This document shows, in pieces, positions 5,833 to 27,292 of a stretch of 32,746 nucleotides of DNA (position 1 is the first letter of the stretch; each line of letters begins with the position of its first letter). The translations under genes and the position numbers were made by a program. The DNA comes from Syntrophaceae bacterium (GTDB lineage: Bacteria; Desulfobacterota; BSN033; UBA1163). The DNA is taken from NCBI GenBank assembly GCA_013388645.1, contig JACAEV010000053.1, positions 1 through 32,746 of the forward strand. Reading direction: 5' to 3'. The notes beneath the pieces were generated by a model. It made no database searches. It saw nothing but the letters and a program-made list of their open reading frames with translations, and was not told where the DNA came from.

Positions 5833-5918
5833 TTGGAAGAATGGAATGATGAATTAGGGAAAAATCTGTAAATAAATGTTTTACCCATTATTCCACAATT
5901 CCAATATTCCATCTTTCT
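5833..5918. repeat. 8-bp-unit intergenic repeat, inverted arms
   Basis: On the left are degenerate units GGAAGAAT and GGAATGAT (5835-5850). After about 36 bp come the complementary units ATTATTCC, ACAATTCC, AATATTCC and ATCTTTCT (5887-5918), in strict 8-bp register. The arms face each other and can form an imperfect hairpin. It fills the gap between the NuoF-like and NuoG-like genes, 15 bp before the next start codon. The same family occurs at 23848 and 27190. Confidence 0.75.
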
Positions 5919-5932
5919 GAAAGATTTATTCT

Positions 5933-10746: not shown

Positions 10747-10762
10747 AGATGAGGAAATGATT

Positions 10763-11395
10763 ATGAATCAGCAATCCGCCATCCGCACTCCCCAATCCGC
10801 ATTGGAGAGGATGAATATCCAAATGATTATTTCTGGAGTAGGGGGACAGGGGGTTCTCTTGGTGACAAGAATTTTTGCAGCCTTTGCCCTTCGGGAAGGA
10901 TATCCACTCATTGGTTCAGAAGACCACGGAATGAGTCAACGGGGAGGGTCGGTGATGACCCATCTGAAAATTGGTAATTTCGATAGTCCCCTTGTCAAGA
11001 AAGGAAGCGCAGACCTCCTCTTATCCCTTGAAAAGAATGAGGCTTATAAGACTCTTTATTACCTTAAACCCGCTTCGAACGGTCAAGACGGTGGCCTTTG
11101 CTTTATCAACGCCCCGAATTCTAACGATATGAATAAAGAAATTAAAAAATATCTTCAGGAAAGAAGAATCGGCGTCTATGTATTTGGTGCTGATCAATTA
11201 GCCAGGGAAATGGGGTCCGTTCAATCTGCAAATATTGCTCTTATCGGTTTCGCTGCGGCCCATCATCGATTTCCTTTTCAACCTGAAAAACTCAGAGAGG
11301 CGATCGAACAAGTGACCTCTCAAAGATTTCGAGAAGTAAGTCTAAAAATATTTGAAAAAGGGTTCTTGGAAGGGAAAAAATCTATCACAGAATAA
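10763..11395 (+). CDS. iorB: Indolepyruvate:ferredoxin oxidoreductase beta subunit
   Basis: Gamma-type 2-oxoacid oxidoreductase subunit that pairs with IorA to complete the CoA/TPP site. The diagnostic start IISGVGGQGVLLVTRI and the motif SEDHGMSQRGGSV are present. Homologues usually begin at the ATG at 10811, where GGAGAGG sits too close to the codon. The ATG at 10763 has GAGG about 8 bp upstream and adds 16 residues, most of them translated from a 7-bp repeat, so the extension may or may not be real. It lies 16 bp after IorA and no other 2-oxoacid oxidoreductase subunit is present. About 195-210 residues is normal for IorB. Confidence 0.92.
   Translation: MNQQSAIRTPQSALERMNIQMIISGVGGQGVLLVTRIFAAFALREGYPLIGSEDHGMSQRGGSVMTHLKIGNFDSPLVKKGSADLLLSLEKNEAYKTLYYLKPASNGQDGGLCFINAPNSNDMNKEIKKYLQERRIGVYVFGADQLAREMGSVQSANIALIGFAAAHHRFPFQPEKLREAIEQVTSQRFREVSLKIFEKGFLEGKKSITE
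10771..10805 (+). repeat. 7-bp tandem repeat at the 5' end of iorB
   Basis: The units GCAATCC, GCCATCC, GCACTCC and CCAATCC (10771-10798) follow each other in exact 7-bp register, then a partial unit. CCAAT (10792-10796) can pair with ATTGG (10801-10805). If iorB starts at 10757 or 10763, the repeat is translated as an N-terminal QSAIRTPQSAL-like stretch; if it starts at 10811, the repeat lies just before the start, as with the other elements of this window. Confidence 0.7.
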
Positions 11396-15997: not shown

Positions 15998-16129
15998 TCA
16001 AAGATAATCTGATTCGTTAGGGATGTCGGAAAAAATCTTATAGCGGTAACCTTGACGTTCCCTCCAAACCCCAAAATCCCCTCGAGGGCTAAAGAAATAA
16101 TCAATAATAGCGATTGTGACCCTTCCCAA
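15998..16129 (-). CDS. Possible small ORF of 43 residues within an inverted repeat
   Basis: An open frame from TTG (16129) to TGA (15998-16000) reads LGRVTIAIIDYFFSPRGDF and continues to a C-terminal YKIFSDIPNES. It has no visible ribosome binding site and I do not recognise the family. The last part overlaps one arm of an inverted repeat; the other arm, read on the plus strand in the matching frame, gives YKIFDDIPNGS. The similarity of the two translations suggests the repeat derives from a once-coding or mobile sequence. It may not be a real gene. Confidence 0.25.
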   Translation of the reverse strand: MGRVTIAIIDYFFSPRGDFGVWRERQGYRYKIFSDIPNESDYL

Positions 16130-16183
16130 TAAAATATTAGAAAATCCGCTTTATAAGATTTTTGATGACATTCCTAACGGATC
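16011..16183. repeat. Imperfect inverted repeat, about 38-bp arms, MITE-like
   Basis: The arm at 16011-16046 matches the reverse complement of 16146-16183 with about five mismatches and one 2-bp gap; the shared core is AAAATCTTATA. About 100 bp lie between the arms. The structure stands at the junction between coaBC and the decayed defence island. It could be a miniature transposable element or the ends of a deleted insertion; no target-site duplication was identified. Confidence 0.55.
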
Positions 16184-21381: not shown

Positions 21382-22581
21382 ATGGATGAAGCCCAAGTCT
21401 TTAAAAACATTACCGTTTTAAGTCTCGAACAAGCAACAGTCCTCCCTTATTTGACCCTCCGTTTAGCGGAAGACGGCGCCAATGTCATCCGTATGGAACA
21501 TCCCATCTATGGGGATCCCAACCGACGAGTTGGAGACGATGTTTTGAAAGAGGACAGGATGTTTTCCTATTATCTTTCCATCAATGCCGGGAAAAAGGCC
21601 TTGACGCTGGATATCGGAACTCCGGAAGGGCAGGAGATTTTAAAGAAACTCATCCTCAAATTAAAAGTAGATATTTTTGCTACCAATCAACTACCCAGAA
21701 ATTATCCAAAACTTGGAATTGAGTATGAGATGCTTAAAAAGATTAAAGAGGACATCATTTGGCTTGGGATGACCGGTTTTGGCCCTCAAAGTAATGAAGC
21801 GGCTTATGACCCTGTCCTTCAAGCAAGAGGTGGATTGATGGAACTCACAGGAGAAAAAGGGGGCAGCCCGCAGGTCATGGGAATTCCACTCCCCGACATG
21901 GGGGCCAGTGAACATGGCTACGGTCTCCTGATGAAGGCCCTCTATAAAAGGGCGGTGACCGGACAGGGGAGCCGTATTGATCTATCGATGTTCGAAAGCA
22001 CCGTCTCATGGCTGACTCAAGCGATCACTCATACCGCCACCTTTAAGAAAAAGGTTTCCCGAAGAGGAAATACTCATGAATTCTTTTCACCCGTCTCTGT
22101 CTATCAGACCAAAGATGGCTATGTCTACATTGCCGTCGGAAATGATAAACAGTGGGAAACGATGACCAAAATTCCGGGATTTGAGTCTCTTTATAAAAAA
22201 GAGTATGAAAGGAATGCCGGCCGAATTGCAGATGTAGACAATTTAAATAATGCGATTAACGCCATTACTAAAAATTTTTCAACCAACCAACTGATCGAGA
22301 TCTTCAATAAAGCGACCATTGCTATTTCTAAGGTCAATACGATTGAAGAAGTCGTTGAGGACCCCTTGGTCAAACCAAATTTGATTCGAAGCAAGGACCC
22401 CAAGACAGGATTGGAGATCACCATCGCACCACCTCCTATCAATAATGCCTATCTGAAATCCATTGACCGGATGATGAGTTTTCCTCCTCGATTTGGGGAA
22501 CATAATGAGGAAATTTACGGTGGCCTGTTGGGATATAGCGCTGCCCAATTAAAGGAGTTTAAGGAGAAGAACATTATATAA
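21382..22581 (+). CDS. Class III CoA-transferase (CaiB/BaiF family)
   Basis: Moves CoA from one acyl-CoA to a free acid, activating the substrate for dehydrogenation. The family signature is clear: VLSLEQATVLPYLTLRLAEDGANVIRMEHP, then KKALTLDI, and catalytic aspartate D172 in LPDMGASEHGYGLLMKALY, followed by GQGSRIDLSMFES. The length of 399 is normal. Substrate unknown. By analogy to carnitine CoA-transferase and arylpropionate-type enzymes next to fix/etf genes, a carboxylic acid that is later dehydrogenated is likely. It is first in the operon, with promoter and palindrome upstream. The next gene is separated by a 7-bp-unit hairpin element. Confidence 0.92.
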   Translation: MDEAQVFKNITVLSLEQATVLPYLTLRLAEDGANVIRMEHPIYGDPNRRVGDDVLKEDRMFSYYLSINAGKKALTLDIGTPEGQEILKKLILKLKVDIFATNQLPRNYPKLGIEYEMLKKIKEDIIWLGMTGFGPQSNEAAYDPVLQARGGLMELTGEKGGSPQVMGIPLPDMGASEHGYGLLMKALYKRAVTGQGSRIDLSMFESTVSWLTQAITHTATFKKKVSRRGNTHEFFSPVSVYQTKDGYVYIAVGNDKQWETMTKIPGFESLYKKEYERNAGRIADVDNLNNAINAITKNFSTNQLIEIFNKATIAISKVNTIEEVVEDPLVKPNLIRSKDPKTGLEITIAPPPINNAYLKSIDRMMSFPPRFGEHNEEIYGGLLGYSAAQLKEFKEKNII

Positions 22582-22586
22582 GTAAT

Positions 22587-22662
22587 GAGTTCGGAGTTCA
22601 GAGTTCGGAGTCCCAAGACGAAACGCTCCGAACACCGAACTAATCACTCCGAACTATTGCGA
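22587..22662. repeat. 7-bp-unit inverted repeat element (copy 1)
   Basis: The left arm has units GAGTTCG, GAGTTCA, GAGTTCG and GAG (22587-22610). A 15-bp centre follows, then the complementary arm with CTCCGAAC, ACCGAACT and ACTCCGAACT (22626-22655), and the flank ATTGCGA. The left arm is identical over 24 bp to the copy at 24711. The hairpin ends just upstream of the AGGAG site of the acyl-CoA dehydrogenase gene. Confidence 0.85.
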
Positions 22663-22677
22663 CGAAAGGAGCAATCG

Positions 22678-23838
22678 ATGGCTCTTGATTTCACTTTTAC
22701 TGAGGAGCAAGAATTTTTCAGACAAATGGTTAGGGATGCGGTGAATCGGTTGATCATGCCCAGGGTAAAGGAGCTGGATGAGAAAGAAGAATTTCCTTGG
22801 GATCTCTGGAAAGAATTTGCGGCTTTGGGATATCTGGGCCTGAGGCACGAAGAAAAATATGGGGGGATGGGAATCGATACGATTACCCAGATGATCTTTT
22901 ATGAAGAATTAGCAAGAGGGTCCTGTGGTTTTTCCATGTCGGCAACGATGCAGATCCTCATGGGAACTTACTTCATTGCCCGCTTTGGAAATGAAAATAT
23001 TAAGCAAAGGATTCTTGTTCCTGCCATCAAAGGCGAAAAGATCGGAACGATTTGTTTTACGGAAGACCAATCCGGTTCTGACTTGGCAGGGACTAGGACG
23101 CTGGCGACCAAAGTGGATGGGGGTTGGAGGATCAACGGTAGAAAACAATGGATCACCAATGGACCGATTGCGGATTTTGCCACCGTCATGGCCACGATTG
23201 ATCCCAAGATGGGACTGAAGGGCCTCAACTTCTACCTGGTCGAAAGAAAGACAGCGGATCGGGATGGATTTGTCTCTGGCCAAAGGCTCCATAAATTGGG
23301 TTCCCGCTGTTCTGTGACAGGAGAGTTGGTCATGGATAATACTTTTATTCCTGATGAGAATTTCCTGGGTGAAGAAATTGGAAAAGGAGTTCAGTATGCC
23401 GGGGAGATTCTTAACGAAGTCCGGGTCATGACTGGAATGAATGCCTTGGCCATTGCGAAGGAAGCTATGGAGGATGCAAGACAGTATGCCAACAACCGAG
23501 TAGCCTTTGGAAACCCCATTAGTAAATATCAGTTAATTCGAGAAAAGTTTGCAAAATTCTGGGCATGGTACGAGGCCTCTCGAACTTTCCTCTACAAATG
23601 TGCCTGGATGATCCAAAACAAAATACCGTGTATCAATGAATGCATGTTGGCCAAATATCACTCCACTGAGATGTGCATGTATGCCGTCGAGGAGTGTATG
23701 AGGATTTATGGTGGAAATGCCTTTTGCTCGGAATATCCTGTGCAACGATTCTGGAGGGATGCCAAATTCTTACTTTACGGTGGCGGCACCCATGAAGTAC
23801 TATGTGACTATCTGGGAAGAATCTACTGCAAAGAATAA
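22678..23838 (+). CDS. Acyl-CoA dehydrogenase
   Basis: FAD enzyme that introduces a 2,3-double bond into an acyl-CoA and passes electrons to ETF. Hallmarks: CFTEDQSGSDLAGTRTLA (near 120) for FAD and substrate, QWITNG, VAFGNPISKYQLIREKFA, and EECMRIYGGNAF near the C-terminus. The usual catalytic glutamate before GT (as in YEGT) is a glycine, G369 in YGGGTHEV, so either the base lies elsewhere, as in isovaleryl- and long-chain enzymes, or activity is altered. The true start is 22678 (AGGAG 6 bp upstream). An upstream in-frame ATG at 22585 would translate the repeat. 386 residues is normal. The product probably feeds the enoyl-CoA hydratase-like protein downstream. Confidence 0.93.
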   Translation: MALDFTFTEEQEFFRQMVRDAVNRLIMPRVKELDEKEEFPWDLWKEFAALGYLGLRHEEKYGGMGIDTITQMIFYEELARGSCGFSMSATMQILMGTYFIARFGNENIKQRILVPAIKGEKIGTICFTEDQSGSDLAGTRTLATKVDGGWRINGRKQWITNGPIADFATVMATIDPKMGLKGLNFYLVERKTADRDGFVSGQRLHKLGSRCSVTGELVMDNTFIPDENFLGEEIGKGVQYAGEILNEVRVMTGMNALAIAKEAMEDARQYANNRVAFGNPISKYQLIREKFAKFWAWYEASRTFLYKCAWMIQNKIPCINECMLAKYHSTEMCMYAVEECMRIYGGNAFCSEYPVQRFWRDAKFLLYGGGTHEVLCDYLGRIYCKE

Positions 23839-23847
23839 GTAAAACTC

Positions 23848-23879
23848 TGGAATAGTGGAATTATGGAATGTTGGAACAA
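23848..23879. repeat. 8-bp-unit tandem repeat
   Basis: Four units in exact register: TGGAATAG, TGGAATTA, TGGAATGT, TGGAACAA. Only one arm is obvious here. It lies between the acyl-CoA dehydrogenase stop and the etfB ribosome binding site. It is related in unit sequence to 5833-5918 and 27190-27292. Confidence 0.75.
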
Positions 23880-23915
23880 TGATTCTGGGGTTATTGAACT
23901 GCATTGGAGGTTAAG

Positions 23916-24698
23916 ATGGATATATATGTGTTGGTGAAACAGGTCCCAGATCCCGAAGCCAACGTCAAAGTCAAATCCGATGTTGAATTGGAGATCGAAA
24001 ATAAATATTTCACCAACTTCTTCGATGAAATTGCAATTGAAGCGGGTCTAAAATTGCGAGAAAAGTTTGGTGGGAAAGTGACCGTGTTAACGGTCGATAA
24101 CAAGAAAGTGGATGCCCTGAGAAGAGGAATCGCCATGGGCGCGGACGATGCGATTCAGATCACTGACCCTGCCTTAGAGGGATCCGATCCGTTTGCTATT
24201 GCCAAGACCTTAGCGGCTTATCTCAAGGATAAGCCTTTTGACCTGATTTTGGCGGGCAGACAGGCGATGGACGATGATGCGGGAATCGTCGGGCCGGGCG
24301 TCGCTGAGTTACTGGGAATTCCACATGTGAATATGATCGTGGGTCTTGAGATCGATGATCCCAAGAAAGAGTTAAAGGTAGTCCGAGAGGTAGAGGGCGG
24401 AAAAGAAATCTTATCCTGTTTCCTTCCCGCACTCTTCACCTGCCAGAAAGGTTTAAATAATCCTCGTATTCCCCAGGTCATGAATGTGATGAAGGCGATG
24501 AAGGCTCAGATGAAGAAGGTAGATCTGGCTGCTTTGGGACTGAGCGCAGTCGATGTCGGGGGGCAGGCTGTTAAGATAAAAGTTCAGAAATATTTACCAC
24601 CCCCTAAGAGACCACCCGTGAAAATGATCAAAGAAGATTTTCCAGAGAATGTGAAGCAATTGGTAAAACTACTTAAAGAAGAAGCCAAAGTCATCTGA
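23916..24698 (+). CDS. etfB: Electron transfer flavoprotein beta subunit (FixA/EtfB)
   Basis: Beta subunit of the ETF heterodimer that accepts electrons from acyl-CoA dehydrogenases. The start MDIYVLVKQVPDPEANVKV, the core GADDAIQITD and the signature LAGRQAMDDDAGIVGPGVAELLGIPHV are typical. The VGP...LGIP part resembles, from memory, bifurcating FixA/EtfB more than mitochondrial ETF. 260 residues is normal. The start at 23916 is set by GGAGG 5 bp upstream; an in-frame TTG at 23904 lies within that site. The gene order beta, alpha, fixC, fixX is the fixABCX order, pointing to an ETF that serves both a dehydrogenase and a quinone/ferredoxin branch. Confidence 0.94.
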   Translation: MDIYVLVKQVPDPEANVKVKSDVELEIENKYFTNFFDEIAIEAGLKLREKFGGKVTVLTVDNKKVDALRRGIAMGADDAIQITDPALEGSDPFAIAKTLAAYLKDKPFDLILAGRQAMDDDAGIVGPGVAELLGIPHVNMIVGLEIDDPKKELKVVREVEGGKEILSCFLPALFTCQKGLNNPRIPQVMNVMKAMKAQMKKVDLAALGLSAVDVGGQAVKIKVQKYLPPPKRPPVKMIKEDFPENVKQLVKLLKEEAKVI

Positions 24699-24710
24699 TA
24701 GTAAAGTTCT

Positions 24711-24770
24711 GAGTTCGGAGTTCAGAGTTCGGAGCAAGAAAAAAAATACCGAACTCCGAACTATTGCGAA
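24711..24770. repeat. 7-bp-unit inverted repeat element (copy 2)
   Basis: The left arm GAGTTCG, GAGTTCA, GAGTTCG, GAG (24711-24734) faces CCGAACTCCGAACT (24749-24762) across an A-rich centre, followed by ATTGCGA as in copy 1 (22587). The hairpin stands 9 bp before the AAGGA site of etfA. Confidence 0.85.
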
Positions 24771-27189: not shown

Positions 27190-27292
27190 GGAATAATGGA
27201 ATGATGGAACATTGGAATATCGGGTTGCCGAAATAGGTTTTTGACTTCTTTGATATTGACATTATTCCATCATTCCAATATTTCATTATTCC
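27190..27292. repeat. 8-bp-unit inverted repeat element
   Basis: The left arm holds GGAATAAT, GGAATGAT, GGAACATT and GGAATATC (27190-27221). After 39 bp comes the complementary arm ATTATTCC, ATCATTCC, AATATTTC and ATTATTCC (27261-27292). Both arms keep strict 8-bp register. It lies between fixC and fixX, ending 20 bp before the fixX start. Confidence 0.85.

What the first reader, a model, noticed from the sequence alone, without database searches (positions are those of the whole stretch)
22587..24770. Two near-identical hairpins built of 7-bp units before the ribosome binding sites of acyl-CoA dehydrogenase and etfA
Both copies start with the same 24-bp array of GAGTTCG/GAGTTCA units, face a complementary array and end in CTCCGAACTATTGCGA just before the Shine-Dalgarno site. 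Conservation reaches the ribosome-binding region, so the element could tune translation or mRNA cleavage between genes of one operon. The 7-bp period recalls cyanobacterial short tandemly repeated repetitive sequences, but here the arrays face each other.
Basis: seen in the sequence. Interest (0 to 1): 0.6.

Follow-up and report, generated by a model that had tools for sequence, protein, structure and literature searches.

The report
REP-like hairpin repeats behind stop codons
The two hairpins are copies of a scattered, apparently mobile repeat about 75 letters long that sits directly behind the stop codons of genes in an uncultured bacterial family, where related species often carry hairpins of quite different sequence between the same genes.

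Summary
The two hairpins are real, but they are copies of a dispersed repeat (here F1), not a device of these two genes. F1 is about 75 nt: two facing arms of four 7-nt units around a loop (median 15 nt). The arms are not exact mirror images, so the element has a direction. The host genome holds 107 near-matches to its core against 6 for a reversed control. Of 35 two-arm copies, 28 lie between co-directional genes; 27 of those 28 sit within 14 nt of the upstream stop codon, in either orientation (14:14). Copies in long spacers also hug the stop codon, not the ribosome-binding site. The ATTGCGA tail occurs only in these two copies. In sister species the same junctions often hold hairpins built of other 6-8-nt units; a few are empty. 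Arms do not co-vary. Sampled stretches of two family members, another family and E. coli lack such arrays. I read F1 as a non-autonomous REP/REPIN-like palindrome with unknown mobiliser; the Y1 transposase genes present carry other terminal repeats. Any effect on mRNA or translation is inferred from E. coli REPs. The surprising part is the recurrent occupation of the same operon junctions by unrelated repeat hairpins.

The parts
22581..22610 (+). F1 copy 1, arm A (four 7-nt units plus AG); overlaps the last base of the upstream stop codon
22611..22625 (+). F1 copy 1, loop (15 nt)
22626..22655 (+). F1 copy 1, arm B
24705..24734 (+). F1 copy 2, arm A; begins 6 nt after the etfB stop codon
24749..24762 (+). 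F1 copy 2, shortened arm B (two units left); the congener G004 copy is about 17 nt longer here
23916..24698 (+). etfB-like gene upstream of copy 2 (name recalled from sequence and neighbours; no family search run on it)
23848..23881 (+). one array of 8-nt TGGAATAA units (family F6) in the acd-etfB spacer, without a clear facing arm
27190..27292 (+). F6 hairpin of the same build (facing arrays of 8-nt GGAATNNT units) in another junction
5835..5920 (+). second F6 hairpin in the window

Best explanation
The pair are two copies of a dispersed, non-autonomous palindromic repeat, F1, about 75 nt long. Each arm is four 7-nt units plus AG; one weakly conserved unit is first in arm A and second in arm B, so the stem is imperfect and the element has a direction. 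F1 is one of several families of the same build (6-8-nt units facing each other across a loop). It lies mostly just after stop codons and fills the gap to the next gene. Copies are gained, lost and replaced between species (shown by comparison). Spread by an enzyme acting in trans is inferred. When transcribed, a copy forms a hairpin within about 15 nt of the upstream stop codon; by analogy with E. coli REPs it would mainly lower translation of, or protect, the upstream cistron. That last step was not tested.
For: Multiplicity: 107 core matches against 6 control. Fixed asymmetric arms at unrelated loci and in two genera. Stop-codon position 27 of 28; 4 convergent and 1 divergent copies (divergent fewer than expected, p 5e-4 by bases, 0.037 by spacer number). 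Presence/absence at the same junction: sir2 junction 15 nt in G000, F1 in G002; same pattern for other hairpins, 28738->29894 7, 7 and 296 nt. Arrays common in sampled G000, G001 and G009 spacers but not in G005, G006, G018 or E. coli. No co-variation of arms and no strand bias, as expected of copies that are tolerated rather than individually selected. REP-like habits in print: between unidirectional and convergent ORFs, supplying stop codons, some inside genes (PMC3733652 passages).
Against: No mobiliser identified: F1/F2/F6 arms flank Y1 transposase genes in 1 of 50 flanks. No target-site duplication recognised by eye. The same junctions are re-occupied more often than baseline (26 of 38 against 40 of 295 in G000; weaker against G001, 11 of 29), and some spacers are much more alike between genera than fourfold sites (94% against 43%); both hint at function or at something besides simple insertion and decay. 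The F1 count also rises with genome size.
Confidence: 0.72

Rival explanations
1. One reading: each copy is a selected RNA element that tunes translation or mRNA cleavage between operon genes, acting at the ribosome-binding site of the downstream gene.
For: Strong hairpins in core operons; most junctions that carry F1 in one species carry some hairpin or array in others (26 of 38); a few spacers strongly conserved between genera.
Against: Both orientations equally used; no arm co-variation; copies with long spacers sit at the stop codon, away from the ribosome-binding site; sister species have unrelated sequences at the same site; the tail at the ribosome-binding site is private to two copies.
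Confidence: 0.15
2. F1 is a true REP/REPIN moved by a RAYT-type Y1 transposase of the same genomes.
For: Imperfect palindrome with a direction; five Y1 genes in the host, of which two were tested and one passes the NCBIfam cut-off for REP-associated transposases; F1 and Y1 counts correlate over 18 genomes (0.49, p 0.037); E. coli TnpAREP needs an interrupted stem (PMC8266576 passages).
Against: No GTAG or CGTC tag in the F1 consensus; Y1 genes are flanked by GGGGWSAS-type repeats (24 of 50 flanks, both sides of 10 of 26 genes) and not by F1; G018 has 8 Y1 matches but no F1 core; genome size explains the counts as well.
Confidence: 0.2
3. The arrays arose in place by slippage, like STRR-type heptamer arrays, and face each other by chance or inversion.
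For: Clear 6-, 7- and 8-nt periods; unit loss between direct repeats fits copy 2.
Against: The same asymmetric four-unit arm pair recurs at unrelated loci with different loops, which needs copying between loci.
Confidence: 0.06

Closest known systems
REP / REPIN elements (PMC3116915 abstract and outline; PMC3733652 and PMC8266576 passages)
   Same: Small palindromic repeats, many copies, mostly between co-directional or convergent genes, close to or supplying stop codons, sometimes inside genes; inverted doublets forming a hairpin of about this size; imperfect stem.
   Different: Arms are arrays of four 7-nt units; no GTAG/CGTC tag; not found flanking the Y1 transposase genes; several unit families replace each other at the same junction.
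TIR-flanked Y1 transposases (TIRtrons) and their derivatives (PMC3733652 passages)
   Same: Y1 genes of these genomes carry GGGGWSAS-type terminal repeats, and an intergenic hairpin with the same end sequence exists (L143).
   Different: These terminal repeats are unrelated to F1, F2 or F6.
Geobacter metallireducens elements of four heptanucleotide repeats, GGACCGG, 49 copies (PMC2700814 passages)
   Same: Four tandem 7-nt units, multicopy, between and within genes, in a deltaproteobacterium.
   Different: Other unit sequence; the passages I read describe one array, not two facing arrays; alignment files were not read.
TAACTGA heptamer repeats of Beggiatoaceae (PMC4679880 abstract, sections 3 and 7)
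   Same: Intergenic 7-nt unit arrays near genes, genome-wide.
   Different: Direct repeats, oriented toward and within a few nt of start codons; F1 is facing, orientation-neutral and tied to stop codons.
Cyanobacterial STRR
   Same: 7-nt period.
   Different: Direct tandem arrays; here two facing arms of fixed unit number.

Membership tests
REP/REPIN | Short palindrome in many copies, mostly extragenic | tested here: met
   35 two-arm copies, 33 of them between genes, 1 inside, 1 at a contig edge; 107 core matches
REP/REPIN | GTAG or CGTC tetranucleotide at one end | tested here: not met
   F1 ends AGT...ACT with A/T-rich flanks in 127 copies
REP/REPIN | Imperfect stem giving a direction | tested here: met
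   Displaced variant unit in F1 and F2
REP/REPIN | Associated RAYT gene flanked by the repeats | tested here: not met
   1 of 50 flanks of 26 Y1 ORFs (an F6 arm) in five genomes; 9 of 35 loci gave no ORF
MITE | Terminal inverted repeats shared with an autonomous transposon, with target-site duplication | tested here: inconclusive
   Inverted arms yes; no duplication seen by eye; only Y1 transposases were examined
STRR / simple heptamer arrays | Direct head-to-tail 7-nt repeats only | tested here: not met
   Two facing arms
Known RNA family | Match to an Rfam model at gathering score | tested here: not met
   0 matches in the window
Selected RNA structure | Own arms pair better than arms swapped between copies | tested here: not met
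   F1 21.11 against 21.17, n 127; F2 23.86 against 24.61, n 21; F6 16.32 against 16.23, n 31
Translation-damping REP (E. [quoted passage not shown]
   27 of 28; criterion from PMC12306157 section 8
Translation-damping REP (E. coli) | Lowers translation of the upstream gene | not testable with these tools
   Needs an experiment

The most novel reading that the evidence does not exclude
A class of mobile hairpins outside the RAYT/REP system, with arms of about four 6-8-nt units, spreads in part of this family by landing on stop codons. Operon junctions work as sockets: what persists at a junction is that a hairpin stands behind the upstream stop codon, while its sequence is swapped wholesale between unrelated repeat families.
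Probability: 0.3. Interest if true: 0.75.

Novelty: new variant of a known kind. Interest (0 to 1): 0.5.

Why it matters
If junction hairpins are interchangeable, the same operon in sister species is a natural experiment on what an intercistronic hairpin does, independent of its sequence. The uneven presence of arrays within one family also offers a route to an unknown mobilising enzyme for hairpins built of short units. And it cautions against reading such hairpins as gene-specific regulators from one genome.

Tried and rejected
Rejected: Rfam families. The ATTGCGA tail as part of the element. F1 flanking Y1 transposase genes; the ORF filter missed most ORFs and was replaced, which still found no ORF in 9 of 35 loci. 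Separate models seeded as F3, F4 and F7 drifted into F1 on iteration and were not used; only F1, F2 and F6 arms are characterised. For F6 my two arm frames differ by one base, so its best pairing is at shift -7, not 0. F2 own-arm pairing was lower than or equal to 499 of 500 permutations, unexplained. Scripts failed because my module file had been emptied; the work was redone. Literature searches; one search found no paper holding the literal repeat strings. I claim no absence from print beyond those searches.

Counts and drops: one search listed 100 of 107 matches; I fetched stretches around the listed ones. One search gave 55 clusters; one search placed 62 elements; 59 were classified (35 two-arm, 24 one-arm) and three weak ones were dropped; copy 2 of the window counts as one-arm because its right arm is short. 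One search gave 28 placements from 40 fetched stretches; the others gave none above 40 bits. In one search, 4 of 42 spacers were set aside as not co-directional. Species sharing a junction are not independent, some share copies by descent, and against the G001 baseline (11 of 29) the excess is weak (22 of 33, p 0.04). Genes were called by my own hexamer program, not by a curated annotation. Unit families of sister-species spacers were assigned by eye.

Full report
Observation. Copy 1 spans 22581-22655, between an upstream gene (stop codon ending at 22581) and acyl-CoA dehydrogenase (22678). Copy 2 starts at 24705, 6 nt after the etfB stop codon, and its right arm ends at 24762, 18 nt before etfA (24781). 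The left arms are alike; the right arm of copy 2 is short. Both fold better than shuffled sequence (z -4.35 and -2.73). The window holds 10 core matches against 1.74 expected. No Rfam family matches.

Genome-wide. The core GAGTTCGGAGTTC with up to one mismatch occurs 107 times in the host genome (3.95 Mb, 250 contigs) against 6 for the reversed control. The terminal sequence CGAACTATTGCGA occurs exactly twice, both in this window, plus one site with a mismatch. So the apparent conservation into the ribosome-binding region is local; congener G002, without F1 in front of acyl-CoA dehydrogenase, still has GACGAAAGGAG there.

Anatomy. Alignment of copies gives arm A AGTTaTG AGTTCGG AGTTCAG AGTTCGG AG, a loop, and arm B whose reverse complement is AGTTCGG AGTaATt AGTTCGt AGTTCGG AG. 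Each arm is four 7-nt units plus AG; the median loop is 15 nt in 127 copies. The weakly conserved unit is first in arm A and second in arm B, so the stem is imperfect and the element has a direction. The same asymmetric arms occur in congeners G001-G004 and in G009 and G016 of another genus. Two further families have the same plan: F2, four 8-nt units plus G, with the GGATTC unit third in arm A (52% A at the key base) and second in arm B (85%) (21 copies), and F6, 8-nt GGAATNNT units (31 copies).

Position. Of 35 two-arm copies, 28 lie between co-directional genes, 4 between convergent and 1 between divergent genes, 1 in a gene, 1 at a contig edge. In the 28, the distance to the upstream stop codon is -13 to 14 nt in 27 and 88 nt in one; 11.2% of co-directional spacer bases lie within 15 nt of a stop (binomial p 5e-25). 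The distance to the next start is 10-28 nt in 15 of 28, but in five copies it is 46 to 542 nt, and these too sit at the stop codon (14, -12, 2, 1 and 1 nt). The anchor is therefore the end of the upstream gene; nearness to the next ribosome-binding site follows from short junctions. In relatives, 18 of 21 two-arm co-directional copies lie -12 to 11 nt from the stop. In some copies the TGA inside AGTNNTGA serves as the stop codon. Orientation is 14:14 here and 28:21 pooled (p 0.39). Of 24 one-arm copies, 7 lie inside called ORFs.

Turnover. The etf operon in relatives carries different hairpins in the same spacers. At five F1 junctions of this genome and six of congeners the gap is filled in most species by facing arrays of other units. 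Scored automatically, 26 of 38 spacers of species not used to choose the site were array- or hairpin-positive (4 of 42 set aside), against 40 of 295 junctions in this genome; without spacers that hold F1 themselves it is 22 of 33 (p 1.5e-10 against G000, 0.04 against the small G001 baseline). Empty sites exist: the sir2 junction is 15 nt in G000 and holds F1 in G002; for other hairpins, gene 28738->29894 is 7 nt in G000 and G001 but 296 nt in G004, and 5933->7237 is -1 nt in G000 but 98 nt in G001. Of 85 same-junction pairs within the genus, 8 reach 69% spacer identity (shuffled null: mean 43, maximum 57); global identity misses shared copies in spacers of unequal length. Some copies are shared by descent: etfA in G000 and G004, glnK and acpS in G000 and G001, nuoN in G002 and G004.

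Lineage. In an own-genome sample of 432,647 bases, 21 of 157 co-directional spacers of 45-300 nt hold arrays, of period 6, 7, 8 or 14, against 0.5 in shuffles and 0.6 in coding DNA (the sample was taken from contigs most of which were known to hold F1). The same scan gives 6 of 18 in G001, 17 of 42 in G009, 1 of 29 (period 5) in G005, 0 of 26 in G006, 0 of 42 in G018 of another family and 0 of 31 in E. coli. In one search, 15 of the 17 genomes of the family hold the exact core and 6 of the other 42 do. A named scan gave 22 stretches, 18 of them titled Deltaproteobacteria, Thermodesulfobacteriota or Syntrophaceae, the others one each uncultured proteobacterium, Alphaproteobacteria, Acidobacteria and Omnitrophota.

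Mechanism. Shown: a dispersed family with fixed asymmetric arms, at stop codons, in both orientations, present or absent at the same junction. Inferred: spread by an enzyme acting in trans. Y1 transposases are the obvious candidates (five matches; of two proteins tested, one above and one below the cut-off of NCBIfam's REP-associated model), and counts correlate weakly (0.49, p 0.037), but within the family F1 count follows genome size more closely (0.66), and the Y1 genes carry GGGGWSAS-type terminal repeats (24 of 50 flanks) rather than F1/F2/F6 arms (1 of 50). So I do not file F1 as a REP in the strict sense, though it behaves like one: REPs lie mostly between co-directional and convergent ORFs and supply stop codons (PMC3733652, passages), and E. 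coli TnpAREP needs an interrupted stem (PMC8266576, passages). In E. [quoted passage not shown] F1 meets the distance, the effect is untested.

Selection. Own arms pair no better than swapped arms (F1 21.11 against 21.17; F2 23.86 against 24.61; F6 16.32 against 16.23), so there is no sign of compensatory change. Two results point the other way: recurrent filling of the same junctions, and spacers more alike than synonymous sites, namely G002/G012 before acyl-CoA dehydrogenase 94% against 43% at fourfold sites of that gene, and G001 against G011 and G012 before etfB 86% and 81% against 40-50%. These could mean constraint, lateral transfer of junctions, or repeated targeting; I cannot separate them.

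Noticed in passing
window 10747-10812: An array of CAATCCG-like units (tandem-repeat hit 10766-10801) lies before the gene called at 10763; the called N-terminus (NQQSAIRTPQSALER) looks like translated array, so the true start is probably about 10811.
   Followed up: partly
L071:1997-2026 (G000 C195): A one-arm F1 copy lies inside an open reading frame (gene 1354-2517) and would be translated as part of the peptide STPNSELRTPNYY, like an in-frame repeat insertion; the protein looks like a UDP-GlcNAc 2-epimerase (recalled, no search).
   Followed up: partly
L143:8127-8237 and L083 (G000): An intergenic hairpin with ends GGGGACAGGCTACTTTTT matches the terminal repeat beside the Y1 transposase gene of C195: a likely miniature derivative of that transposon, unrelated to F1.
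   Followed up: partly
L264 and L263 (congener G004): A longer repeat (about 220 nt, beginning TGAACTACCCCGCAGCAAGCTGCGGGG) fills three junctions of the region and part of it a fourth.
   Followed up: no
L111 and L114, spacer before acyl-CoA dehydrogenase: An F2 hairpin spacer is 94% identical between genomes of two genera while fourfold sites of the next gene are 43% identical. Lateral transfer, constraint or repeated targeting; unexplained.
   Followed up: partly
window 16011-16183: Two 32-nt inverted arms (84% complementary) 109 nt apart in a 527-nt spacer; possibly a decayed mobile element.
   Followed up: no
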